This document shows, in pieces, positions 192 to 57,513 of a stretch of 64,000 nucleotides of DNA. The stretch is from positions 10,746,899 through 10,810,898 of the forward strand of contig OZ007517.1 of NCBI GenBank assembly GCA_963931865.1, written 5' to 3'. Position 1 is the first letter of the stretch; each line of letters begins with the position of its first letter. The notes under the pieces are model-generated. The model did no database searches, was not told the origin of the DNA, and worked only from the letters and a program-made list of their open reading frames with translations. This DNA comes from Axinella damicornis (lineage: Eukaryota; Porifera; Demospongiae; Axinellida; Axinellidae). The position numbers and the translations under genes are program-made.

Positions 192-977
192 CAATTTTTA
201 GTGAGACATGTAGTGCATGATCATCCAGTGTAGAAAACCTTGACACAGAAGATGCTGCGGCAAGTAAGCCATTGCATCTGATTGATCGGTGTATGAGGTT
301 GTAATATAGCCGGGGCTCAGTTTCAGCAACAGCAACCAGAGAATCTTCATTGTTTTGATCTTCATCATGTTGATATATGCAGACACCAACAATATCACCC
401 ACCGTGACGTTGAATTGCTCTGACGGTTGTAGAGTAAGTGTCTCACAGGACTCTGGAAAACTGGAAGACAAGTCACTTCCTCTGATTGAAATATGCTCTC
501 GTCTGATGCGTTGATACCATCTGATGCCAAATGCCTCTGTCTCCCTATACACTCCAATATCAGCTGCATAAAACCGGTTATTTCGCACTGATGCAGGAGG
601 GTAGTAGCAGAAGCGCCAGGCTGTAGCAGTGCCATTGCAGGCTACACGGGATGAGATGTCCAGGAACAAGCCAGTTTCAGTTGTTCCACTGGAACCCTGG
701 GGTGGGGTGTTGCTTGGAGCACTGCATGAAGCACCAGTGATTGTTGGGAAACTTGAGATGACCACTGAAAATAGATTGAGTTATAGCATCTTTGAAGAAC
801 ACTGGTACTCTTTTCTTATGGCAATTGTAGTAGCTAGTTTAAAAAAGAACATGCCTTGCTTGACCTAAATTGCATTTTGTTTTTGGTTTTAGTTAGCTAA
901 AATACAGACACACACACACACAGACATACACACATTTTACCTGTCAGTGTCAGCACTAGAAAGAAGTATGTCTTCAT
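192..977 (-). CDS. RTK type-M ectodomain, partial (gene A, runs off the left edge)
   Basis: The 5' part of a minus-strand receptor gene paralogous to the intact gene at 15725-20640. Exon 1 (977..941) encodes a hydrophobic signal peptide (MKTYFFLVLTLT). Exon 2 (764..192) encodes the same Cys-containing ectodomain (motifs [31 protein letters not shown]). The junction is phase 1, and exon 2 ends at a clean GT donor in phase 1. Bases 1-60 look like a degraded start of the stalk/membrane exon (the segment reading DASSIE). No membrane segment or kinase is in view. It could be a functional gene continuing to the left, or a fragment like gene B. The ectodomain function is unknown. Confidence 0.6.
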
Positions 978-1602: not shown

Positions 1603-2116
1603 ATGTGTGGAAGAAACCATGCTGTCTTTTCTGCTGCTCTGTGGATTCTGTCTCTGTAATCGACTACTCTAGCTTGTTGCATGAGATATTCTCATAATCA
1701 GGTGGTTCACAAATCAGATATATGATACAGCTTTAGCTGAGAATGTGGATGCACTATTCAATATTATGTAGGTATGTGTAGCTAGCTACCATTACAGTAT
1801 GGCACATGCAGAATTATTAGACTGCCATTCATGATTTCAGGTCTGTGTCAGCGGTGACTACACACTTGAAATACTGATCATTTCTTACTCCAACCTTGGG
1901 AATCAGGCAACTGTGTTCAATGGTGACTGCTGCGACACTGTACAAGATTGTGTTAATGTGTGTGAAAACCAATTCCACGTCACGGCACAACAACCTGGTC
2001 GCCAAATAGGCAGTGCTGTGATTCCCACCAATACGGGCTACCATGACGATGAAGTCATTAATCTTCGTGTCAACATTGAGTCAGCAGGTCAATGGATGGG
2101 ATCTATTGTGCAGTAA
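1603..2116 (+). pseudogene. DSL-RTK fragment (copy 0a): signal and MNNL exons only
   Basis: First two exons of a plus-strand DSL-RTK. Exon 1 (1603-1656) matches the signal exon [18 protein letters not shown] with one change, but the GT donor has lost a base (CTCTG|TAAT), so correct splicing is unlikely. Exon 2 (1841-2095) keeps the MNNL-like module (SYSN, NGDCCD, CENQFH, GSAVIP) open, but the expected donor after GQW is absent and the frame stops at 2116. No DSL, membrane or kinase exon follows before 3900. Confidence 0.75.
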
Positions 2117-3033: not shown

Positions 3034-3103
3034 TCCTGGCTACATGGTTTGTGAAAGTTACAGAATCTTGTATTTTCAAGGTCTGATTATTAAATTAATT
3101 AGT

Positions 3104-3531
3104 CTTCACTTCCTGATTATTAATAGTCTTCACTTCCTGATTATTAATAGTCTTCACTTCCTGATTATTAATAGTCTTCACTTCCTGATTATTAATAGTC
3201 TTCACTTCCTGATTATTAATAGTCTTCACTTCCTGATTATTAATAGTCTTCACTTCCTGATTATTAATAGTCTTCACTTCCTGATTATTAATAGTCTTCA
3301 CTTCCTGATTATTAATAGTCTTCACTTCCTGATTATTAATAGTCTTCACTTCCTGATTATTAATAGTCTTCACTTCCTGATTATTAATAGTCTTCACTTC
3401 CTGATTATTAATAGTCTTCACTTCCTGATTATTAATAGTCTTCACTTCCTGATTATTAATAGTCTTCACTTCCTGATTATTAATAGTCTTCACTTCCTGA
3501 TTATTAATAGTCTTCACTTCCTGATTATTTC
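3104..3531. repeat. 24-bp minisatellite, about 18 copies
   Basis: Near-identical tandem copies of TCTTCACTTCCTGATTATTA plus ATAG. The 24-bp period is a multiple of three, so long open frames exist on both strands (SLHFLIIN and VKTINNQE units). These are artefacts of the period. Confidence 0.95.
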
Positions 3532-3903: not shown

Positions 3904-4472
3904 ATGTGTGGAAGAAACCATGCTGTCTTTGCTGCTGCTCTGTGGATTCTGTCTCTGGTATGTCATAATCCTCTATACTAGGTTGTTGAGATATTGTGGT
4001 TCACAAATTATATTAGGGCTGTGATAGTTGTAGAACGTGCATGCACAATGTAATAAGTGTCTGTAGTTATATAAACATCGTATACATGCTGCAAGCTGTA
4101 ATAACCTGCCATTCATAACATCAGGTCGGTGTCAGGGGTGACTATACACACTTGATATGCGTATCTTTTCGTACTCCAACCCTGGGAATCAAGCATGCAG
4201 TTACGAGGAATGGTAGCTGCTGTGATAATGACTGTGAAGAAGTTGATGAGTGCGACAACCAACTCCACTTCAGTCTCCGACCATCACCTACCTGTGATGT
4301 CCACACAGGCAGTGCCGTAGTTCCCAGCAACAACACTTTCTATCATTCCCTGAATGATTAGAATTAGTGGTATATTTACACTAGTGAAGAAGGTTCAATC
4401 GAAGAACCTACAGAGGTAACAATGGTTATGCTACAATTACACTCCGTTTCGACGTGGATTGTGCTGAAGTAA
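3904..4472 (+). pseudogene. DSL-RTK fragment (copy 0b), frameshifted and truncated
   Basis: Exon 1 (3904-3957) is an intact signal exon with a good GT donor. Exon 2 (from 4125) is MNNL-like, but a 2-bp insertion near 4147 (GACTATACACAC against GACTACACAC in the intact gene) shifts the frame, and its 3' end is lost near 4356. A scrap of the DSL exon (about 4386-4472) matches 7726-7815 of the intact gene. It stops abruptly just after the VDCA codons, where homology switches to the minus-strand gene B juxtamembrane exon. This is a dead copy with a rearrangement breakpoint. Confidence 0.8.
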
Positions 4473-6298
4473 CTGTCGTATTCTTGCTTGCTGGTGACTT
4501 CACTATCAAATCCATAGTGTGCAGTGTGCAGTAATGCCCTGGGCATTGAACTGGGATTCCGCGTAGTAGGGTAGATTGTCAATGCTAGCAACAACAGGAT
4601 TACTCAGCACGTGTGTAGTGGCATTCAATTTCTGAGTGTGTATAGGTTCCTCATATGCACTGAACCTGACAACGTGGTCTGCATGTGGGAGAAGGGTTAA
4701 CTTAAACTTTGTGCGTGGAAAGTGGTGAATGAAGCTCCATCTTCACTGCTCACCCTGACGTCCGTCTCTAGCAGAGGTACTGATCTGGTACTTGGAACTA
4801 TTCCACTTCTTTTGAATGCAGACACACAGACCGATCATGACCATAAGGATCACCAGTGTTGCTACTGCTAGCCCCAGTGCCATGCCTGTAATTTGACCAA
4901 TGCCTATGTTGTTTTCCGAATCCATACTGTCGACATAATGTATTGTCTGTGTGCTTATCGGAAGGGGAGGCTCAATGCTGGATGTATCTCTGGCTGACGA
5001 TGTTGGTCCTGCACATTACAAGGAAGTATAGTAAAAATTAAAGCAGATGTTTTATCATGCGGTACCTCAAATACACTATTGATAGGTACACGGTATACTT
5101 ACTCTGCATGGGTGTCCCGTGAACCTGCATAGATTTGCCGGGTACTCCAGGGAGGAGACTCGTAGCAGGGAGGGCGGATGACATGGGAGGAATGTTATCC
5201 ATGACTGCAGATTGCGATGAACTTGAGACAGAGCTAACACTGCTCACTGAAGTTGGAGTTACCGATCCTGAATTGAAGATGAGTGGAACCAAGCAAATGC
5301 CCGCGTATTCACAAGCATATAGTTATCATATTCACATGATTGCCTGTGCTTTAAATAACTGCATGATGACAAGCACCTTGCATTAACAATGAAGTGATTC
5401 TTTACTCGATCCAATAATAATATTGCAGAACATCCTCACAGCCACAAAATTCTATATCAGCTGCAGGTTGTGTCCCGCTATGATTACTTACCAATTTCTA
5501 GTGAGACATTTAGGGCATGATCACCCATTGTAGTAAACCTTGACACAGAAGATGTACCGGCAAGAAAACCGCTGCATCTGATTGGTAGGTGTATAAGACT
5601 GTAATGCAACCCAGGCTCAGTTTCAGCAACGACAATCAGAGAATCTTCTCCATTGTTTTGATCCTCATCGTCCGCACCACGTTCATATATACAGACACCA
5701 ACAATATCACCCACCATGACATTGAATTGCTCCGACAGTTCTAAAGTACGGGTATCACAGGACTCGGAAAAACTGGAGGACAAGTCACTTCCTCTCTTTG
5801 AAATATGCTCTCGCCGGATGCGTTGATACAATCTGATGCCAAATACCACTGTCTCCCTATACAATCCAATATCAGCTGCATACAACCGGTTGCTCTGCAC
5901 TGATGTAGGAGGGTAGTAGCAGAAGCGCCAGGCTGTAGCAGTGCCATTGCAGGCTACACGGGATGAGATGTCCAAAAACAGACCAGTTTCAATTGTTCCA
6001 CTGCAACCCTGGGGTGGGGTGTTGCTTGGAGCACTGCATGAAGCACCAGTGATCTTTGGGAAATTTGAGATGACCACTGAAAATAGATTGAATGCTATTG
6101 GTTATAGCATCTTTGAAGAACACTGGTACTCTTTTCTTATGTGATGATGGTAATTACCTTGCTTGACCTATTTTGGTTTTAGTTAGGTAAAATACAGACA
6201 CACACACAGACATACTAGCATACACATATTTTACCTGTCAGTGTCAGCACCAGAAAGAAGTATGCCTTCTTTGGTGGGCCAGGTAGTGCGTTGAACAT
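4473..6298 (-). pseudogene. RTK type-M, kinase-less truncated copy (gene B)
   Basis: Paralog of the gene at 15725-20640. Exons on the minus strand: signal 6298..6235 (start at MFNALPG, because the ATG used in gene A is changed here); ectodomain 6076..5492; stalk 5267..5139, which ends at a GC rather than GT donor (CCCG|GCAAAT); stalk and membrane 5008..4754 (membrane segment [20 protein letters not shown]); juxtamembrane from 4678. The juxtamembrane exon carries a 7-bp duplication (GTGTGCA twice on the plus strand, about 4518-4531) that breaks the frame relative to gene C, and homology ends at about 4473 where a DSL-exon scrap begins. No kinase exon exists. It might still be expressed as a membrane-anchored decoy, but the lesions favour a pseudogene. 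Confidence 0.75.
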
Positions 6299-6938: not shown

Positions 6939-7540
6939 ATGTGTGGAAGAAACCATGCTGTATTTGCTGCTGCTCTGTGGATTCTGTCTCTGGTATGTCA
7001 TAATCCTCTACACTAGCTACTTGAGATATTGTGAATTCATGACCAGGCGGATCACAAATCATGTTTGGACTGTGTTTAGTTGTTGCTATCTGAGAACATG
7101 CATACACAATGTCAATGCATGACGTGCTATAGCTATTATAGTCTACATCCATAACAAGCTGCTGCCGTTCATGATTTCAGGTCTGTGTCAGGAGTGACTA
7201 CACACTTGATATGCACATCTATTCGTACTCCAACCGTGAGAATCAAGCAGTTGCGAGGAATGGTAGTTGCTGCGATGATGACTGTGATGAGTGTGAAAAC
7301 CAACTCCACTTCAGTCTCCGACCATCACCTACCAGTGGTTTCCACACAGGCAGTGCCGTGATTCCCAGCAACGATACTTTCTATCATGACAATCAGTTCA
7401 GAAATCTTGATGTCATCATTGAGTCACGGGGTCCATGGCTGGTAGGTTGTACATTGAAACTGGTATTAATTACACTTTTGGAGTACTTTATCCGTGCTTC
7501 TTCATGCAGATCAATTTGGCTATGACCAATAAGTTTGGAT

Positions 7541-7573
<33 letters not shown>

Positions 7574-10500
7574 TTGCATGCTCCACTCCACCGTGCAGCT
7601 ATGACTGCACATCTGCTACCTCTATAGGGTGAAGTGCAGATTGACATTCAGGTCATTGACGTTGATGACTCCAGTCCTGGGGACCTGGTGGACACCTTCA
7701 CCATTAATGTTAATGCCAACATGCAAGGTCGAAGAAGGCGCGATCGAATAACCTACAGCAGTGACAATGGTTATGCTAGAATTAGATTCCGTTTCACCGT
7801 GGATTGTGCTGAGAACTATTACACACAAGACTGTAACACGTTTTGCATGGCACAAGACAATGAAATGGGGCACTACACCTGTGACGGGCAAGGAAACAGA
7901 GTTTGCCTGGAAGGCTTCAGTGGCAGTAACTGTGGTGCAGGTGAGCCACGTCCACACTAGTGTGCTTGTAGCTAACTAGATGAGTATAGCCAATTTTGAT
8001 GTCATGCTTGCATGCTACTCTCCTACTTCTGTTAAGATTTCTCAAGCCAACTTCAATTGGAAGCTACTTCAACACATCTAATCAGCCCGACTACACAATT
8101 CCCTGATAGCACATTTACATCAATGGCCACTGCGAGCATCTCTAGGCCTCCAGACAGTCGGTTAATTGTTGACCTTCCCACCCACCTGGTCCTTCCAACA
8201 CCATCAAGTGCTGACCACCTGGTCCTACCAACACTATCAAAAGCTGACCTAACCAGCCACCTGATCCGACCAATGCCATCAAATGCTGCATTCAGTAGTC
8301 CCAATCCCATTGTTTGGGGCGTGGGCACTGGAGTTGGAGGAGCTGTCATTTCACTGATTGTGTGTACAGGAGTGCTTTCTTTTGTGGTGCGTAGAAAGTG
8401 GTTTAAATGTACACGCCACAAAGAAGACATTAATGACAGTGTTCCTGCAAGTAAGTGGAAGTTACTCAAACCTAATTATGACGTGCAGGTGCACGTGTAT
8501 GATCTAGGTCCACCTTGTATCTCGCACAGATGGCTCAGTAGTGATGACAAGATTTGCAGGTGAAATGTACACCAACCAGTTTAGTCTAGTCCAGTCTAAC
8601 CAGTTTGATGAATACACTGCCACGGTTAGCCTCCTGCCCAAACAGGCTGTTCTCTAATGTGCACCAACCAGTTGATGAATACACTGCCACGGTTAGCCTC
8701 CTGCCCAAACAGGCTGTTCTCTAAATAAGGGTCTTGATGATGACAATCATATCCTTGCAGAAGGTGAAGCCATACAGAGATCCAGCTTCAACAGAGGATG
8801 ATCTTTGCATTCAATTGAAAGAAAACAATCTGCAATTTATTCCCAGGGAAATGATAGAGTAAGTTAGAAGATGTAATGTCTCTAGCAAGTCTAGGCTTAT
8901 CATAGCTATGTGAACCACTGATGTCAAACTCTATAGGGTCATACATCCACTGGGTGAAGGCCACTTTGGAGTTGTGGACCGGGGCATCTGGAACGATTCA
9001 AACGGGATGATCTCTGAGGTTGCACTGAAGTCTGTGAAACCAGGTCCTTCCCAGGAGGAAAGGGTCAAACTGCTGCAGGAGGCGGTCATCATGGCTCAAT
9101 TCAAACACCCCAATGTCCTCAAATCCTACGGAGTGGTGGCACAACCTGACTTGGTAATATCTGCATGAGGAATGGATACTAAGCTTGAGCATGAGTCAGC
9201 CCCCACAGTGATAGGAAACGCTGGCTGCATAAGTATGTAGCTAAATTTGTCACATCACCAATTGTCCGGTTAAAGCCTTTAGCCTCTGTTTGCAACTGTA
9301 ATTATTGTGGCATGTAAAGTTGACACTGTAAATAATTATAGCTGGAGGCCAGCCCCTAGGAATGGTCATGTAAAGCCTGTAACCTGCTTTAGATCCCCCC
9401 CCCCCCAACACCACCACCAACCATTTAACTACAAGCTGCTGCATGGCTAAGCTCAGCTATTGTTAACATTGTTACACAGGTGATACTGGTGCTAGAAACC
9501 TGTCATGGTGGTGACCTCAAGAAATATCTGAAATCAAACTACGAGTAAGAGTATAATGGCTCATTTATCATGATTGCCGAAACACTGTTTATTTCATGCT
9601 CGAACCAACCCTCCGCAGTTCTAGCTCTTTGGACAATGACACACCGAACCAGCTGCTCAACTTCTCAAGGGACGTTGCCATGGGAATGCATTACCTATCA
9701 TGCATGGGGTTCATCCACCGAGATTTAGCTGCAAAGAACATCTTGGTTACTGCTGGGAAGACTTGCAAGGTAGAGCTTCTATGCATGTGAGTCACTTTGA
9801 ACATTTTGTAATTTACCATAATTATTCACAGATTGCTGATTTTGGTATGTCTCGGGATCTAATGAAGTTCGATGGCACCTACTACATATCAACAAGTGTC
9901 CTGGTGCCTGTGAAGTGGACAGCCCCAGAAGCCATTACTGACAGGAAGTATTCCACTGCCAGTGATGTTTGGAGCTATGGCTGCCTGCTGTACGAGATCT
10001 GGAGCCTGGGGCGGGATCCTTATGAGAACATACCCACTTCTGATGTAAGCCACAAAACTATCCATGTATGCTGCAAAAATTCATTGTTACTGTCTGGGCT
10101 ATACAGGTTCTGGGAAGGATACAGTCTGGCTATCGAGATCCTCCTCCACCTGGATGCCATGGAACAATCTACCAGCTGATGACAGAATGCTGGTCAGTCC
10201 TGCCATTAATTGGTCCGTATTTGAACTCATGCACAGGAAGAAATTCATTTGTGGGACAATACTTTATACATGCAGGCAGCTGGATCGCCACTCTCGACCA
10301 TCTTTCAAGGATGTCATGACTGTGTTACTTCAGAACAAAAGCCTGACCCAACCCCCCAAAATCCCACCAAAGCCACAGGAGGGTGGAGATGTAATCTACA
10401 ACACCTCAGATATGATACGAATTCTGTCACAGGAGGATGGAATTGTGTACTACAATAGCTCAGTGATGATACGTACACCAGCACATGAGTCACAGGAGGG

Positions 10501-10591
10501 TGGAGATGTGTACTACAGCCGTCTGGAAATGGTGCACACACCAGCAGATTACTACAACACGAGCTCATACTCTAAGTTGAATCACTCTTAA
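6939..10591 (+). CDS. Receptor tyrosine kinase with MNNL and DSL (Notch-ligand-like) ectodomain, copy 1
   Basis: Eleven exons, 741 aa: 6939-6992, 7181-7441, 7628-7940, 8037-8488, 8761-8858, 8937-9153, 9480-9544, 9619-9769, 9832-10044, 10107-10192, 10276-10591; all phases close. Order: signal peptide [22 protein letters not shown]-like module about residues 19-105 (SYSN, GSCCDDDC, CENQ); DSL domain about 165-207 with six cysteines ([27 protein letters not shown]); Pro/Ser/Thr stalk; one membrane segment about 304-330 with a basic stop (RRKWFK); tyrosine kinase from about 395 with GEGHFG loop, Lys in [26 protein letters not shown] and RHSRPSF. The tail has repeated Tyr motifs (DVIYNTS, DVYYSRLE, YYNTSSYSKL). 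There are no EGF repeats between DSL and membrane, unlike Delta/Serrate. By family knowledge DSL domains bind Notch; whether this one does is unknown. All catalytic motifs are present, so it is probably an active kinase. Confidence 0.9.
7532..7570. repeat. Poly(G) tract in an intron
   Basis: An uninterrupted run of about 39 G within intron 2 of the DSL-RTK. Length is uncertain because such runs are hard to sequence. Confidence 0.9.
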
Positions 10592-11651: not shown

Positions 11652-14600
11652 ATGTGTGGAAGGAACCATGCTGTCTTTGCTGCTGCTCTGTGGATTCTGT
11701 CTCTGGTATGTTATAATCCTCTACACTAGCTACTTGAGATATTGTGAATTCATGACCAGTCGGCTCACAAAATCAGACAGAGCCCTGGACTACACCTTTA
11801 GTGATGTTGTCTGAGAGTGTGCATGCACAAGGTAGCTACAACAGTGTGTAGCTATATATTGCAGTAAAGTTCACTTCTATGATTTCAGGTCTGTGTCAAG
11901 GGTGACTATACACTTGAAATCCTCATCAATTCTTACTCCAACCCTGGGAATCGGGCAGTTAGGTGGAATGGTGGCTGCTGCGATGATGTCGAGTGTGAAG
12001 ACTCGGGGTGTGAGAACCAATTCCACTTCACGGCCCAATCACTATCTAACGGTGCAGCCCAAATAGGCAGTGCTGTTATCCCCAGCACCCATACTGGATA
12101 TCGTGACAATGCCGTTGATGATCTTTATGTCAGCATTCAGTCCAGCGGACAGTGGCCCGTAAGATGCACTTTAAGTTTTAAGTAGACTAGTGGCCTCAAA
12201 CATATTTGAGGAAATTGTTTAACTGTTTTTTCAAGTTTGGCTACCACTGCACGTCCTCACTCTTGTACAGGGTGGAGCACAGATTGACATTCAGGTCATC
12301 GATATCGACTTTTCCAGTCCTGATGACCTGGTGGATACCTTCGCCATTAATGCCATCCTGCCAGGTCAAAATGGGTATACTACTGCTACAACCTATAACA
12401 GTGAAAATGGTTATGCTACCATTAGACTCCAGTTCCGGGTGGTGTGTGCTGCGAACTATTACACACAAGACTGTGACACGTTTTGCATGGCACAAGACAA
12501 TGAAATGGGGCACTACACCTGTGACGGGCAAGGAAACAGAGTTTGTCTGGAAGGCTTCAATGGCAGTAACTGCAATGAAGGTGAGCCACTTGCATGCATG
12601 CATTGTGCCAGTATAGTGCCTTTGATATCATACTTGCTACTCTTGCTTCTGCTAAGCTGTCTCAAGCCAACTTCAATTGGAAGCTACTTCAGCACATCTA
12701 ATCAGCCCGACTACACAGCTTCCTGACAGTACATTTACACCGATGATCACTGCAAGCACCTCAATGCCTCCAGAAAGCCAGTTAACTGTTGACCTTTCCC
12801 GTCACCTTGTCCTGGTCATACCAACACATTCAGCTGACCTTTCCAGCCACCTGGTACCAGCACCATCAAATGCTGACCTTTCCAGCCACCTGGTACCAGC
12901 ACCATCAAATGCTGACTATTCCAGCCACCTGGTACCAGCACCATCAAATGCTGACTATTCCAGCCACCTGGTTCTACCAACACAAACATTCAGTGGTCCC
13001 AGTTCCAAACCTACATCCAGCACACCAAATCTGGACAATATTTCTAGTATTAGTACTATTGTTTGGGGCGCGGGTGCTGGAGTTGGAGGATCTGTCATTC
13101 TACTGTCTTTGTGCACAGGAGTGCTTTCTTGTGTGTTGTGTAGAAAGTGGTGCAAATGTACACGCCACAGAGCGGACATCAAAGTTAATCATGAAGGTAG
13201 GAGGAAGATATTATCCAAACTGGAGGTGCAGGTATATGATCTACCAGTTTGTGTCCCACACAGATAATTCAGTTGTGATGACAAGATTTACAGGCATGAG
13301 TACCAACCAGGTCTACACATCTGCATCTACTGATTATGTGGTATACGCCATTATTATCAATTTACTGAGCTATCAATTCAATGCCATGGTTATATTACCT
13401 TCAAGAGCACAACATGATGACATCGTTGTCATTGTGTCGTCCGCCACGCTGCAATGATGATGTCACCATGCGCTCTTGTTACTTTCTATACCAGGCCATT
13501 CTCTATTTAAAGGATAAGTATCGGTCTTGATGATCACAGTTCTTGTCCCTACAGCGGATGAAGACATACAGAGATCCAGCTTCAACGGAGGATGATCTTT
13601 ACATTCAATTGAAAGAAAACAAACTACAATTTATCCCCAGGGAAATGATTGAGTATGTTAACCAGTCGCAGATGTAATATTGAGTAGCTAGTTCTAACAG
13701 GAGTAACTACATGTATAGGCTTATTGTATGTGGATGGATGTCAAATTCTATAGGGTCAGATTGCCACTGGGTAAAGGCCACTTTGGAGTTGTGGACCGGG
13801 GCATCTGGAATGATCCAAGTGGGATGATCTTTGAGGTTGCACTGAAGTCTGTGAAACCAGGTGCTTCCCAGGAGGAAAGGGTCAAACTGCTGCAGGAGGC
13901 GGCCATCATGGCTCAGTTCAAGCACCCCAATGTCCTCCAATCCTACGGAGTGGTAGCACAACCTGACTTGGTAAAAACATGACTAAGCCTGAGCATGGGC
14001 AGTCCCACAGTAATTGGAAGTGTTGGCCCGGTAATTGGAAGTGTTGGCCCGGTAATTGGAAGTGTTGGCCCCGGTAGTCATGCACAATCATAGAGCTACT
14101 TGTCGATGTGCAAATCATGCTTTGGGATTCTTTGCCCAACCATTTACAAGACGTTTGTTGCACAATACTTACTCAACCTACAATATACTTGCACTGCGGC
14201 AGCTGTTAATGAAAATGAGTAGATGATCAACTACATTCTCTCAACCAAGCAATCAGTAGTAGTAGTCAGTGTATTCTGACCGGCTAAGCTATTTATGGCT
14301 ATTGTTGTTATGCAGGTGATACTTGTGCTTGAAATCTGTCATAGTGGTGACCTCAAGAAATATCTGAAATCAACCTATGAGTAAGCTCAGATAGCACTAT
14401 AGTAACGGCTCATATATCATGCATGATTGCCGAAACACTACTGTTTATTTCATGCTTGGACTAAACCCTCCACAGTTCTAGTTCCTCCTTGGACAATGAC
14501 CTACCGAACCAGCTGCTCAACTTCTCAAGGGACGTTGCCATGGGAATGTGTTACCTATCATGCATGGGCTTCATTCACCGAGATTTAGCTGCAAGGAACA

Positions 14601-15479
14601 TCTTGGTTACTGCTGGGAAGACTTGCAAGGTAGAGCTTCTTTGCAAATGTACACTTTGAACCTTCTTTAATAATTATTTATCATAATTCACAGATTGGTG
14701 ATTTTGGTATGTCTCGGGATCTAATGAAGTTCGATGGCACCTACTACATATCAACAAGTGTCCTGGTGCCTGTGAAGTGGACAGCCCCCGAAGCCATTAC
14801 TGACAGGAAGTATTCCACTGCCAGTGATGTCTGGAGCTATGGCTGCCTGCTGTATGAGATCTGGAGCCTGGGGCGGGATCCGTATGAGAACATACCCACT
14901 TCTGATGTAAGCCACAAATCTATCCATGTATGTTGCAACAATTCATTGTTCACTTTCTGCCTACAGGTTCTGGGAATGATACAGTCTGGCTATCGAGATA
15001 CTCCTCCACCTGGATGCCAAGGAAGAATCTACCAACTGATGACAGAATGCTGGTCAGTCCTGCCATGATAGTATTTATTTGAACTCATGTACAAGTAGAA
15101 ATTCATTTTTGGGACAATACTTTGTACATGCAGGCAGCTGGATCGCCACTCTCGACCGTCTTTCAGAGATGTCGTATCTGTGATACTTCAGAAAGACTCC
15201 CAGACCCAACTCCCCCCCACCCAACCCCCCCGAATCCCGCAAAAGCCACAAAAGAGAAGAAATATGTATGACAGTGCCTCAAAGATGATACATCCACTAG
15301 CACCGGCGCCACAAGATGGTGGCGATGTGTACTACAGTACACCAGAGGTGATGTGTACTTCAGCAAATGAGTCACAAGCGGGTGAAGATGTCTACTACAG
15401 CATCCCGGAGACGATACGCACACCAACAGATTACTACAACACAAGCACGTACTCAAAATTGAACAGATCTTGGTGGTGA
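11652..15479 (+). CDS. Receptor tyrosine kinase with MNNL and DSL ectodomain, copy 2
   Basis: Tandem paralog of 6939-10591 with identical exon order and phases. Exons 11652-11705, 11889-12158, 12271-12580, 12657-13231, 13555-13652, 13754-13970, 14316-14380, 14476-14629, 14694-14906, 14967-15052, 15134-15479; 795 aa. The MNNL-like part reads [18 protein letters not shown] and ENQFH; the DSL domain ([29 protein letters not shown]) is complete. The stalk is longer than in copy 1 because a 13-residue unit ([13 protein letters not shown]) is tandemly repeated about four times. One membrane segment precedes RKWCKC. The kinase has [29 protein letters not shown] and WTAPEA. The C-terminal tail keeps repeated DVYYS and [10 protein letters not shown] sites. 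It converges with gene C on the opposite strand. Confidence 0.9.
14005..14075. repeat. 21-bp tandem repeat, about 3 copies, intronic
   Basis: Tandem GTAATTGGAAGTGTTGGCCC units within the intron between the first two kinase exons of DSL-RTK copy 2. Confidence 0.85.
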
Positions 15480-15724: not shown

Positions 15725-18700
15725 TTATACTGAGCCCTTGTCCTGGTCTGGTGTGAAGTATTTCCACTGTAGATCCTTGTACATCCTCTCTCCGGCACTC
15801 ACGGGAGCTCCCAGTACCCCTGCTAGCTGGTGGGTGGTCAGATCTTTGTCAGGTATTGCCAACACTATGGACTCTGGCTCCATCAGTTGCAGCAGTACAT
15901 CCTTGAAGCCAGGACGCAAGGAGGAGTGTGGATGCCTGCATGGGGTCGATAGCTTGCTATTGAACTGTTCCCTTAATGTTCTCTTAACATGTACAGAAGA
16001 TTGATGCATCAGTTGAGCAAACTCACCAGCATTGTACCGTGAGTTCATATATCACCCTGGGACAGCCAGGTGGAGGGGGGAGGCGGTAGCCAGTGTCTAA
16101 CTTTTCAAGAGCCTTTGTATTAAGAATGGAAACATGATAATCACATTTCAGGTCAGCTGTGGTGAATTTTTTTCAGTACCTCTGAATTGGAACAATCATC
16201 ATATGGCATTTTCCCCAGGCTCCAGATCTCATACAGCAGGCAGCCATAGCTCCAGACGTCACTGGCAGTGGAGTACTTGCGGTAATGAACTGCCTCTGGT
16301 GCTGTCCATTTCACTGGAATCTTGCCACCTTGAGACAGATAGAAATTCTCATTTGCCAGATCACGAGACATGCCAAAGTCAGCAATCTGTGAACAACAAC
16401 GAAAGTGTGGATTAGCATCAAATTAGCATTTGCCGTTTGAAGCATGTTGCTAACTTGCTAACCTTCAAGATATTCTCATCTACAACAAGAATGTTACGAG
16501 CAGCCAAGTCACGATGAATGAAGCCCTTGCAGGCCAGGTACTGCATTCCAAAGGCAACTTGCTGTGAGAAGGTGATTAGAATCTTGCTTGTTTCTGCTGC
16601 CACAAGGTTCCCTGGACTGGGTGTTGTGTATTTGGCTCTATGAAGACAAAATAAGAACTACGTATAGTTCTACACCAAACTTACGCAGGATTCATTGCTG
16701 CCAGGTAATGCACGAGATCACCTTTCATCCCCAATTCCATCACAATCATCACCTGCCATAGAAGAGGTTCCATTGTTAACACTAATAGTGACCAGCACAG
16801 CTCGCTGAACACATTGTGTAGCACAATCCCGCACCGTATCTTCTCTGGCCACTACTCCAAACAGCTGGATGACATTAGGGTGGAGAAACTGTCCCATGAT
16901 GGCCGCCTCCTGGAGTAATTTGACCCGGTTTGCCTTTACTGCCCCAGCAGCCAGCCTCTTCACAGCCACATTCACGATTCCATGTGGACCATTCCACACA
17001 CCTTTCCCAACCTTACCAAACTGGCCTGACCCAAGATGACCGGTGATACTGGAAGAGGAGATCGAACGTTATTATAGCTCCGTCCAATGGTGAGAATTGC
17101 ACATCCAGACAACGACCACAACATACATGATCTCTTTCCTAGGGATCCTGTTCAGTTTCTGCTTCTCAAACTGGTCATAGAGTCCTTCCTCATTCTTTGC
17201 AGGTGCAATATATCCATCACCACATTCCTGATGTCCCTTTGCAGCCTGTGAAAGAGAATGCATGCATGGGCATTGTACCAATAAAGCACTATAGATGTAT
17301 ATACCTACCTGTTCCAGGGTTTTGTAGTAGTGTTCACAAAGCATAGAGTACTGTCCAAACGTAATTAAATTCTGCAGAAAACATATACAGGGTTACACAC
17401 ATTTGACTACTAAACTATTGTGATGGATATTTTGCACAAACGTTCTATCCACCTTGTGTTGGCCATTGCACATGGGATGGACAGTTCTGTCGTACTCTTG
17501 CTTGCTGGTGATTTCACTATCAAATTCATAGTGTGCAGTAATGCCCTGAGCATTGAACTGTGATTCTGCGTAGTAAGGTAGATTGCTAGCAGCAACAGGA
17601 TTACTCAGCACGTGTGCAGTGGCACTCCATTTCTGAGTGCGTATAGGTTCCTCATATGCACTAGGATGGACCCTGACAAGGTGGTCTGTGGGAGAACAGT
17701 TACTGCATGGATGAACTCTCATCTTTACTGCTCATGCACCCTTTCCAATACAGTCAGCTGACCTTCAGAGTTGCTGATCTGGTATTTGGAACTCGGATTC
17801 TTTTGAATGCAGACACACAGACCGATCAAGACCACAAGGATCACCAGTGTTGCTACTGCTAGCCCTAGTGCCATGCCTATGATTTGACCAATGGCAATCT
17901 TCTCTTCTGTATTTCCAAGGTTTTGTACGGTCTGTGTGTTTGTCGGAAGAGGAGGATCAATGCTGGATGTATCTGTGAGTTCACCTGACAATGTTCGTCC
18001 TGCATGTAACAAGGAAGTATTATTAGCCTAAGTACATAGCTCAAATATATGGAGCTATTAGGTAAATGCAATGCAGGGATTAGGCTGGTAGCAGAGAGGG
18101 TGGATGACGTGTGGGGGTCATTTCTATTGCAAGATCGCTGCTAATTGCAAGATTGATGACGTGACAAACTTGAACAGAGATATGGCTGCTCTGTGGAGTT
18201 GGGGTCAACAATCCCACGCACATTCTAAGTGACTGCATAAAAAGCTTGTGTCCTGTTGTGATTACCAAAATCATCAGAGGTATACTGCTGCAGCCATCGC
18301 TATATTCCTGCAGTTTGAACTAGTGCCCAGAATGCATTTACAAATGCCGAACACACTTAGCTAAGTGTCAACGTATTGTATAGTGTGTGCTCTAAGAGAA
18401 ACTCATTGCTGGAAGTCATGGAGCTGTCACATTAACAATGCAGGTTATACTATCCTGTCCCGTGAACGTGCATAGTTTTACCGGGTACTCCAGGGATCAG
18501 ACTGGTAGCAGGGAGGGTGGATGACATCGGAGTCATGCGTATTGGAGGCATGCCATCCATGGCCGATGAACTTGAGACAGAGCTACTCACTGCAGTTGGG
18601 GTCAACGACCATGAATGAAAATGCCAATGAAACTATAAGAAACTGATGTGATTACCAAGGGAGTAAAATGACCAGAGCCATAATTATGTTACTACTTCAG

Positions 18701-20640
18701 CCATAAGTTGACAAAATAAGCTGAATACACTTAAGCTAAGTGTTTCGGCATCATCATTGTATAATGTGTGTGTTCAAAGGGAAAGCTCAATGCTGAATGC
18801 GCGTCTGCTGTTGATGATGTCACTAGCTACCATACTGTGCAGCACCCGGAAGGTGCTATCACGTACCAGGTACTCCAGGCACTGGGCTGGCACCACGGAT
18901 GGATGAGGTGGGGGTCATGAACATTGCAGGCAGGTTATCCACGTCAGAAGATTGTGATGAACTTGAAACAGAGGTACCGGTCGCGCTACTCACTGAGCAG
19001 TGTTTGAGGATGAATGAAATCATAGTATGATTGTAAATGCCAGTGCATTGTAGCCACAAACACACATTTAACTATGTGTCTTGCTGCAATTACCAGACCA
19101 AATATCCAAGCTATAATGTATGCTATAATACTGGAGTTGTTGCTATGCCTACAGATTGAATATTACAATGTATAGTTAAGTGTGCTTGGGAAGAGACAGG
19201 ATTCATGTGTTAGTTTGCCTTGCATCTATATCAAGGAAGTAATTCATAATTTTACCGGGTACTCCAGGGGTTAGGCTGGAAAGAGGCCTGGCAGCCAGGG
19301 TGGGTGATGTGGAAGTCATGGGTATTGGAGGCAGGTTATACCTGGCAAGTGACGAACTTGGAACAGAGGTCGTGACCGTCGTGCTACTCACTGAGCCGTG
19401 TTTGAGGATGAGGGAAATCATATATAAATTCCATTCAGTAGCTATATTATAGTAGTCACAGACCAAAGTAATAAGTATCACCAAGCCTAACAGCTAGAAT
19501 AGTACAGTATGTGTGCTCAGGAAGAGATAACCGAATGCTGGATGTGTCTGTTAGCTATAGTCAGCTGATGATAGTTAAGTATAGTTTTACCGGGTACACC
19601 AGGGGTTAGGCTGGTTGCAGGGAGGGTACCGGTAGCAGAGAGGGTTGAGGAGGACGTCATGGTAGCAGAGAGGGTGGATGAGGAGGACATCATGTGAATT
19701 AAATTTTGTCCATTTATGTTATTCTCGGCAACAGGTTTTGGAGCGGTCACTGTAGTTGAAGGAAAATGGTATAAATGCCTACATCGTCACAGAGCTCTAT
19801 AGCTGGTAGCATTATATCAGCTGCAGGTTGTGTCCTGCTATGATTACCTACCAATTTGTAGCGAAGCATTTAGCACATGATCACCCATTGTAGAAAAGCT
19901 TGACACAGAAGGTACACCGGCAAGATAGCTGCTGCATCTGATTGGTTGGTGTATAAGACTGTAATGCAACCCAGGCTCGGTTTCAGCAACGACAATCAGA
20001 GAATCTTCTCCACTGTTTCTAGTCTCATCATCGTCATCACCATTACCGCCACCATCATATATACAGACGCCAACAATATCATCCACCATAACATTGAATT
20101 GCTCAGACCGTTGTAGAGGAAGAGTTTCACAGGACTCGGAAAAACTGGAGGACAAGTCACGTCCTCTCTTTGAAATATGCTCTCGTCTGATGCGTTGATA
20201 CCATCTGATGCCAAATGCCTCTGTCTCCCTATACAATCCAATATCAGCTGCATACAACCGGCTATTCCGCACTGATGTAGGAGGGTAGTAGCAGAAGCGC
20301 CAGGCTGTAGCAGTGCCACTGCAGGCTACACGGGATGAGATGTCCAGGAACAAGCCAGTTTCAGTTGTTCCACTGCAACCCTGGGGTGGGGTGTTGCTTG
20401 GAGCACTGCATGAAGCACCAGTGATCTTTGGGAAACTTGAGATGACCACTGAATAGATTGAATACGACAGGTTTAAGCAAGAACACTCCGGATACTTGTG
20501 TGATAATAGAATGCAGGTGAATTCAATATTAGTTCAGTTTTTAGTTTTAGTCTTCTGCATTTTAGTTTAGCTGAACACACACACACACATAGCCTACCTG
20601 CCAGTGTCAGCACTAGAAAGTATGCCCTCATTGCTAACAT
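15725..20640 (-). CDS. Receptor tyrosine kinase, type M (gene C, intact)
   Basis: About 926 aa; minus-strand exons 20640..20598, 20448..19852, 19749..19591, 19390..19256, 18992..18867, 18589..18482, 17999..17763, 17685..17453, 17371..17309, 17245..17127, 17048..16835, 16752..16685, 16637..16463, 16386..16180, 16112..16027, 15935..15725; phases close. Signal peptide [14 protein letters not shown] (another in-frame ATG lies upstream); ectodomain of about 200 aa with [32 protein letters not shown] and VGVCIY; stalk from four symmetric Ser/Thr-rich exons ending in PGVPG; membrane segment [20 protein letters not shown]; long juxtamembrane region; kinase with [44 protein letters not shown] and a final LRPGFKDVL helix. 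The kinase resembles that of the neighbouring DSL-RTKs, so the two ectodomains were probably swapped onto one kinase lineage. The ligand is unknown. Confidence 0.88.
18080..18200 (-). pseudogene. Degenerate fifth stalk exon of gene C
   Basis: Resembles the four functional stalk exons (TCATCCACCCTC, GCTACCAGCCTAATCCCTG on the minus strand), but the GTACCCG|GT donor is lost and the phase-1 acceptor is unclear. An abandoned duplicate. Confidence 0.55.

Positions 20641-49347: not shown

Positions 49348-57513
<8,166 letters not shown>

What the first reader, a model, noticed from the sequence alone, without database searches (positions are those of the whole stretch)
6939..10591. Notch-ligand-type ectodomain (MNNL plus DSL) fused to a receptor tyrosine kinase
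The sequence shows, in one 11-exon model with closed phases, a signal peptide, an MNNL-like module with the paired-Cys GSCCDD motif, a canonical six-cysteine DSL domain, one membrane pass and a kinase with all catalytic motifs. Known Notch ligands pair MNNL and DSL with EGF repeats and lack a kinase; known RTK families do not carry DSL. If the DSL domain binds a Notch-type receptor, this would turn a Notch ligand into a direct phosphotyrosine signaller. To my knowledge this architecture is undescribed, but I cannot search.
Basis: partly seen in the sequence, partly recalled or inferred. Interest (0 to 1): 0.92.

Follow-up and report, generated by a model that had tools for sequence, protein, structure and literature searches.

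The report
Delta-headed receptor tyrosine kinase family
A sponge-like genome carries a small gene family whose outer part is built like the head of a Notch ligand (Delta) and whose inner part is a tyrosine kinase, a combination not found in the papers and protein database searched here.

Summary
Pfam finds DSL (E 4e-14) and a tyrosine kinase (E 2e-83). MNNL is not found by Pfam in this copy; it rests on a paralogue and on a profile match to this genome's own Deltas. Four genes on one chromosome share architecture, exon count and phases. The head exons have the intron phases of this genome's Deltas and group nearest a Delta that has EGF-like exons, with modest support. A fifth kinase copy has another head, and its match to a neighbour starts inside an intron: exon shuffling in an RTK array. 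MNNL evolves fast (dN/dS 0.58-1.02), the kinase slowly (0.25-0.49). Notch binding is undecided: no EGF repeats, and two key DSL positions are changed. Most likely it is a contact-sensing RTK with a captured Delta head and unknown partner. No such protein appeared in the papers or protein searches made; other sponge genomes could not be searched as DNA, and no transcript was seen.

The parts
6939..6992 (+). G2 exon 1: start codon and signal-like hydrophobic stretch ([18 protein letters not shown])
   Evidence: phase 0 out, GT donor; near-identical exon 1 in three other genes
7181..7441 (+). G2 exon 2: N-terminal half of MNNL/C2-like domain (NGSCCDD motif)
7628..7940 (+). G2 exon 3: second half of C2-like domain plus whole DSL domain
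   Evidence: Pfam DSL E 4.2e-14; PDB matches Jagged-2, Serrate, Jagged-1; phase 0 in, 1 out as in Deltas
8037..8450 (+). G2 exon 4: Ser/Thr/Pro-rich stalk without cysteines, then the membrane pass and a basic stretch
   Evidence: phases 1/1; hydropathy; repeat units in stalk
8530..8624 (+). G2 exon 5: juxtamembrane (3' end least certain)
   Evidence: closes the phase from 1 to 0; SVV-MTRF shared by the four genes, D with one extra M
8761..8858 (+). G2 exon 6: juxtamembrane
   Evidence: phases 0/2
8937..9153 (+). G2 exon 7: kinase N-lobe (glycine loop, VALK)
   Evidence: Pfam PK_Tyr_Ser-Thr; phases 2/0
9480..9544 (+). G2 exon 8: kinase hinge region
   Evidence: phases 0/2
9619..9769 (+). G2 exon 9: kinase catalytic loop HRDLAAKN
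   Evidence: phases 2/0
9832..10044 (+). G2 exon 10: DFG, activation loop with YY, APE
   Evidence: phases 0/0; 96-100% identical in five genes, this one included
10107..10192 (+). G2 exon 11: kinase C-lobe
   Evidence: phases 0/2
10276..10591 (+). G2 exon 12: end of kinase and tail with VYYN/VYYS motifs, stop codon included
   Evidence: motif counts
11652..15479 (+). G3: second complete DSL-RTK gene, 12 exons (11652-11705, 11889-12158, 12271-12580, 12657-13196, 13264-13340, 13555-13652, 13754-13970, 14316-14380, 14476-14629, 14694-14906, 14967-15052, 15134-15479), 809 aa
   Evidence: sites read, exon 5 start corrected; DSL Pfam E 1.7e-14
1603..2107 (+). DSL-RTK fragment: exons 1-2; no exon 3 matched beside it
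   Evidence: sequence
3904..4468 (+). DSL-RTK fragment: exons 1, 2 and part of 3, stop codon inside the exon 2 match

Best explanation
This is a small family of single-pass receptor tyrosine kinases whose ligand-binding head was captured from a Delta gene. Shown by sequence: Delta-type exons 1-3 (signal-like start, MNNL/C2, C2+DSL) join in frame, through a phase-1 intron, to a stalk and membrane exon and then to the kinase exons of a tandem RTK array; four genes keep the arrangement. Inferred: the head meets a protein partner on a neighbouring cell or matrix, clusters the receptor, and the kinase phosphorylates tyrosines of its own tail, such as the VYYN/VYYS motifs, on which SH2 adaptors could dock. 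The fast-changing MNNL part beside a near-constant DSL and kinase suggests that partner choice is what diversifies. The partner is unknown and need not be Notch.
For: One 760-aa frame from 12 exons, 11 of 11 introns GT-AG. DSL E 4.2e-14 and kinase E 1.8e-83 in that frame. Three other genes with the same 12 exons and phases (G3 exon 5 start fixed). MNNL homology. In own-genome Deltas: phase-0 acceptor before the DSL exon in 9 of 9, phase-1 donor-like site 7-43 bases after the last DSL cysteine in 9 of 9 (7 bases, as in the RTKs, in 4), phase-0 donor after the MNNL exon in 5 of 5, acceptor before it in 4 of 5. Tree: the four heads form one clade (98/97) next to the C12 Delta (80/87), which has EGF-like exons and a TM-like stretch (by eye). 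24 close kinases on two contigs, 4 of them with DSL. Copy X: kinase exon 10 at 97%, other head; its DNA match to gene A begins about 180 bases before exon 6, inside intron 5, and its head is 77% identical to one elsewhere in the cluster. dN/dS 0.25-0.49 in the kinase.
Against: No transcript was available; splicing is conceptual. Exon 5's 3' end is uncertain. No ligand, expression or activity data. MNNL is not recognised by Pfam in this copy, and its dN/dS of 0.58-1.02 also fits weak constraint. Low DSL dS (0.04-0.24) points to gene conversion, so DSL conservation is not all selection. In the C12 Delta the phase-1 donor lies 28, not 7, bases after the DSL. L022 and L023 match MNNL to DSL in one piece, so not every Delta has these introns. 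Gene D lost most of its tail to an in-frame stop. Tail YxN counts are A 6, G2 2, G3 1, D 1, so docking is a weak idea outside A.
Confidence: 0.62

Rival explanations
1. The head still binds Notch. The receptor on one cell meets Notch on the next, so that contact both activates Notch and switches on the kinase in the ligand cell, as in two-way Eph/ephrin signalling.
For: DSL is the Notch-contact module and is intact, with best PDB matches Jagged-2, Serrate and Jagged-1. The genome has EGF-bearing Deltas and a locus with EGF-like, two LNR, TM-like and ankyrin-like stretches (only LNR by profile, the rest by pattern and eye).
Against: No EGF repeats follow DSL. At the JAG1 R203/F207 positions (numbers recalled, letters) the RTKs have Q and M, 4 of 4; of 9 Deltas 6 keep R at the first and none has F at the second. 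An EGF-less Delta exists in Amphimedon and DSL contact residues are not conserved in Amphimedon Deltas (PMC3482393, passages), so these points are not decisive.
Confidence: 0.22
2. The receptor serves recognition of self/non-self or of microbes; the DSL is mainly structural and the diversifying C2 part is the binding face.
For: Tandem array, head swapping, stalk repeats of varying copy number, fast MNNL evolution.
Against: Only four intact-head genes; dN/dS does not clearly exceed 1; no polymorphism data.
Confidence: 0.2
3. The two halves are separate transcripts; a Delta-like gene simply lies upstream of a kinase gene.
Against: Exon 4 carries the frame from the DSL exon straight into the membrane pass; phases close through 12 exons in four genes; gene X has the same kind of kinase exons after another head.
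Confidence: 0.05
4. The locus is decaying and the copies are kept alike only by conversion.
For: Two fragments in the window and a stop in D's tail; introns are alike between copies.
Against: G2, G3 and A are fully open; kinase dN/dS 0.25-0.49.
Confidence: 0.05

Closest known systems
Delta/Serrate/Jagged Notch ligands (including Amphimedon AmqDelta4, which lacks EGF repeats; PMC3482393, passages)
   Same: signal-like start, MNNL/C2-like region, six-cysteine DSL, one membrane pass; intron phases shared with this genome's own Deltas
   Different: no EGF repeats; two MNNL cysteines missing that five of five compared Deltas keep; a tyrosine kinase in place of a kinase-free tail
Receptor tyrosine kinases; nearest solved kinases Eph receptors, then FAK; among the 120 listed database relatives the top ones are sponge kinases, about 50% identical
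   Same: membrane topology, kinase motifs
   Different: Delta-type MNNL-DSL head; none of the 120 listed relatives bears PF01414, some bear sushi or EGF-like domains
DSL-only repeat proteins of cnidarians (PMC2770060, passages)
   Same: DSL used outside the standard Delta layout
   Different: no kinase; one to eleven DSL repeats
Venus kinase receptors (search listings and abstract starts only)
   Same: a module of another receptor class joined to an RTK kinase in invertebrates
   Different: Venus flytrap module, not DSL

Membership tests
DSL domain (PF01414) | profile match above curated cut-off, six cysteines | tested here: met
   53 bits against 24.2; cysteines 165, 174, 178, 190, 198, 207 of the model
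MNNL domain (PF07657) | profile match above curated cut-off | tested here: inconclusive
   no hit in G2 and G3; D 16.3 bits, below; A 26.1 bits, above 22.5, with the region alone but 20.4 with the DSL included; homologous to own Deltas' MNNL
Delta/Jagged Notch ligands | EGF repeats after DSL | tested here: not met
   no EGF in the Pfam scan at E<=0.1; stalk aa 210-298 has no cysteine (sequence)
Delta/Jagged Notch ligands | binds Notch EGF repeats | not testable with these tools
   only contact residues compared: R203/F207 positions are Q and M
Receptor tyrosine kinases | tyrosine kinase domain with catalytic motifs | tested here: met
   PF07714 E 1.8e-83; GEGHFG, VALK, HRDLAAKN, DFG, APE in the sequence
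Receptor tyrosine kinases | single membrane pass between head and kinase | tested here: met
   one hydrophobic stretch over threshold in 4 of 4 genes, between DSL and kinase
Receptor tyrosine kinases | signal peptide | tested here: inconclusive
   hydrophobic N-terminus by eye; no predictor run, below the threshold
Eph receptors | ephrin-binding ectodomain, fibronectin repeats, SAM domain | tested here: not met
   none in the Pfam scan of the whole protein

The most novel reading that the evidence does not exclude
A true kinase-bearing Notch ligand: Notch contact activates the kinase in the ligand-bearing cell, so that one cell pair sends a cleavage signal one way and a phosphotyrosine signal the other way.
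Probability: 0.2. Interest if true: 0.93.

Novelty: new variant of a known kind. Interest (0 to 1): 0.72.

Why it matters
It joins the binding head of one major animal cell-contact pathway to the output end of another, by exon shuffling. A Delta close to the likely donor and a sister kinase with a different head are still present in the same genome. It gives a testable case of how new receptors arise in early animals, and a natural test of whether a DSL head without EGF repeats can bind Notch and drive a kinase.

Tried and rejected
Gene models with phase or site errors were corrected. The third protein search (profile of four proteins) was swamped: only the 7,994 candidates sharing most words were scored, and the sponge kinases do not appear among its 38 hits, so it says nothing about absence. 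AlphaFold of exon 3 alone gave mean pLDDT 51 and was not used; no fold search was made. A profile of the MNNL region of the four found no related PDB chain (one unrelated hit at E 1.7); the query with DSL did. An attempt to build gene X exon by exon failed on an anchor and was not pursued; X is described from open frames and DNA matches. Kinase linkage of other DSL hits: of 31, 4 are in the RTKs; 26 of the other 27 lay in fetched stretches, and tblastn with G2 at E<=0.01 found no same-strand kinase in those stretches; one (C2:12831318) was not fetched. A weak opposite-strand kinase match lies in L018. Genome searches score only the best candidates, so counts are lower bounds (150 of 271 scored). 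The two-transcript and decay readings were weighed and judged least likely. Papers: ten searches ran (six with DSL among the terms; one search found nothing); passages seen in PMC3482393, PMC2770060, PMC8662651, PMC6040629, PMC4739763; everything else as listings and abstract starts. No DSL-kinase protein was mentioned in what was seen.

Full report
What is there. Window 6939-10591 holds twelve exons on the + strand that splice, with 11 of 11 introns GT-AG and all phases closed, into one 760-aa protein. Pfam finds DSL at aa 165-208 (53 bits, E 4.2e-14) and PK_Tyr_Ser-Thr at aa 412-672 (E 1.8e-83), and no EGF, at E<=0.1. The sequence shows a hydrophobic start, a cysteine-free Ser/Thr/Pro stalk, one membrane pass and the kinase motifs GEGHFG, VALK, HRDLAAKN, DFG and APE. 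The PDB comparison gives Jagged-2, Serrate and Jagged-1 for the head (E 6e-13 to 1e-12). For the kinase, Eph receptors lead, then FAK; an EGFR chain ranks first only because it holds two kinase copies.

Family. The window lies in an unnamed 226-Mb genome; the named top relatives of the kinase are sponge proteins, so I take it for a sponge. Three more genes have the same design: G3 at 11652-15479, A in locus L010 (9-13 kb upstream of the window) and D in L009 (about 0.55 Mb away, other strand), whose tail is cut by a stop. They are 73, 76 and 81% identical to G2 (D taken to its stop). Two fragments lie at 1603-2107 and 3904-4468. The exon 10 search finds 24 kinases that match over nearly the whole exon at 63-100% identity, 17 on this contig and 7 on C1; the next by E-value is at 46%, and only shorter partial matches score higher identity (150 of 271 candidates scored). 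Five are at 96-100%, and four of these five carry DSL. The fifth, X, has another ectodomain in which Pfam finds nothing at E<=10. The DNA match of X to gene A begins about 180 bases before exon 6, within intron 5, and its ectodomain is 77% identical to one at L032 in the same cluster. I read this as head swapping by recombination in an intron.

Origin of the head. In the own-genome Deltas that I could read, an acceptor in phase 0 precedes the DSL exon in 9 of 9; a phase-1 donor-like site follows the last DSL cysteine in 9 of 9, by 7 bases in 4 (as in the RTKs) and by 25-43 in 5; a phase-0 donor follows the MNNL exon in 5 of 5, and an acceptor stands at the MNNL exon start in 4 of 5. These are site matches, not proven splices. 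MNNL exons of L013, L014, L015, L016b and L021 were not read cleanly, and L022 and L023 match from MNNL to DSL in one piece, so not all Deltas have these introns. The DSL-exon tree of 16 rows puts the four RTK heads in one clade (98/97) beside the C12 Delta (80/87); some rows have long branches, so the placing is tentative. That C12 gene has EGF-like exons and a TM-like stretch by eye, and no kinase match in its stretch.

Selection. Pairwise dN/dS over six pairs is 0.25-0.49 in the kinase, 0.58-1.02 in MNNL/C2, 0.27-1.39 in the stalk, and 0.08-0.66 in DSL, where changes are few and dS is low. Low DSL dS and alike introns suggest gene conversion.

How it may work. Shown: the open frame, the domains and the repeated architecture. 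From family knowledge: such a layout is a receptor kinase that signals after clustering. Inferred: the head meets a partner by contact, and tail tyrosines dock SH2 proteins. YxN motifs in the tail number A 6, G2 2, G3 1, D 1, and VYYN/VYYS motifs A 6, G2 2, G3 2, D 0, so this is convincing only for A. Notch as partner is possible, as the genome has a Notch-like locus, but EGFs are missing and both JAG1 contact positions (numbers recalled) differ.

Known or not. The head, searched against 5.8 billion proteins, hit two Delta-type proteins, one of them unnamed (176 candidates). The kinase region hit 1,421; of the 120 listed none bears PF01414 in its precomputed domains. A third search was uninformative. 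Ten paper searches found no such protein. Other sponge genomes were not searchable as DNA here, the protein search needs shared five-residue words, and subscription papers and preprints are not in the library, so it may exist elsewhere unremarked.

Noticed in passing
window 193-747, 5493-6059, 19853-20431 (- strand): Three copies of an ectodomain type (one scanned: no Pfam match at E<=10); the copy at 5493-6059 has a TM-like stretch at 4743-5015 but no kinase was matched after it, so it may be truncated.
   Followed up: partly
window 15893-17035 (- strand) and L011 2510-3518 (- strand): More distant RTK kinases of the same cluster, on the opposite strand and interleaved with the DSL-RTKs.
   Followed up: partly
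L010 6897-7454 to L011 about 1271: Gene X: DSL-RTK-type kinase with a different head; its match to gene A starts inside an intron.
   Followed up: partly
G000 C2:12779817-12780764 and C6:681602-682195: Runs of DSL hits in single open frames (6 hits in a 393-aa frame; 4 partly overlapping hits in a 312-aa frame), like the DSL-only proteins reported in cnidarians.
   Followed up: no
L021 (C12 Delta), reverse strand: Delta-like gene nearest to the RTK heads; an open frame after its TM-like stretch shows repeated YVNE motifs.
   Followed up: partly
window 8182-8249, 12833-12972 and L010 2915-3538: Stalk of the DSL-RTKs is built of short repeats with different copy numbers between genes: 33-bp and 39-bp arrays in the window, more units in gene A.
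   Followed up: partly
window 3094-3529 and 52414-53439: Minisatellites: 24 bp x 18 copies and 15 bp x 69 copies.
   Followed up: no
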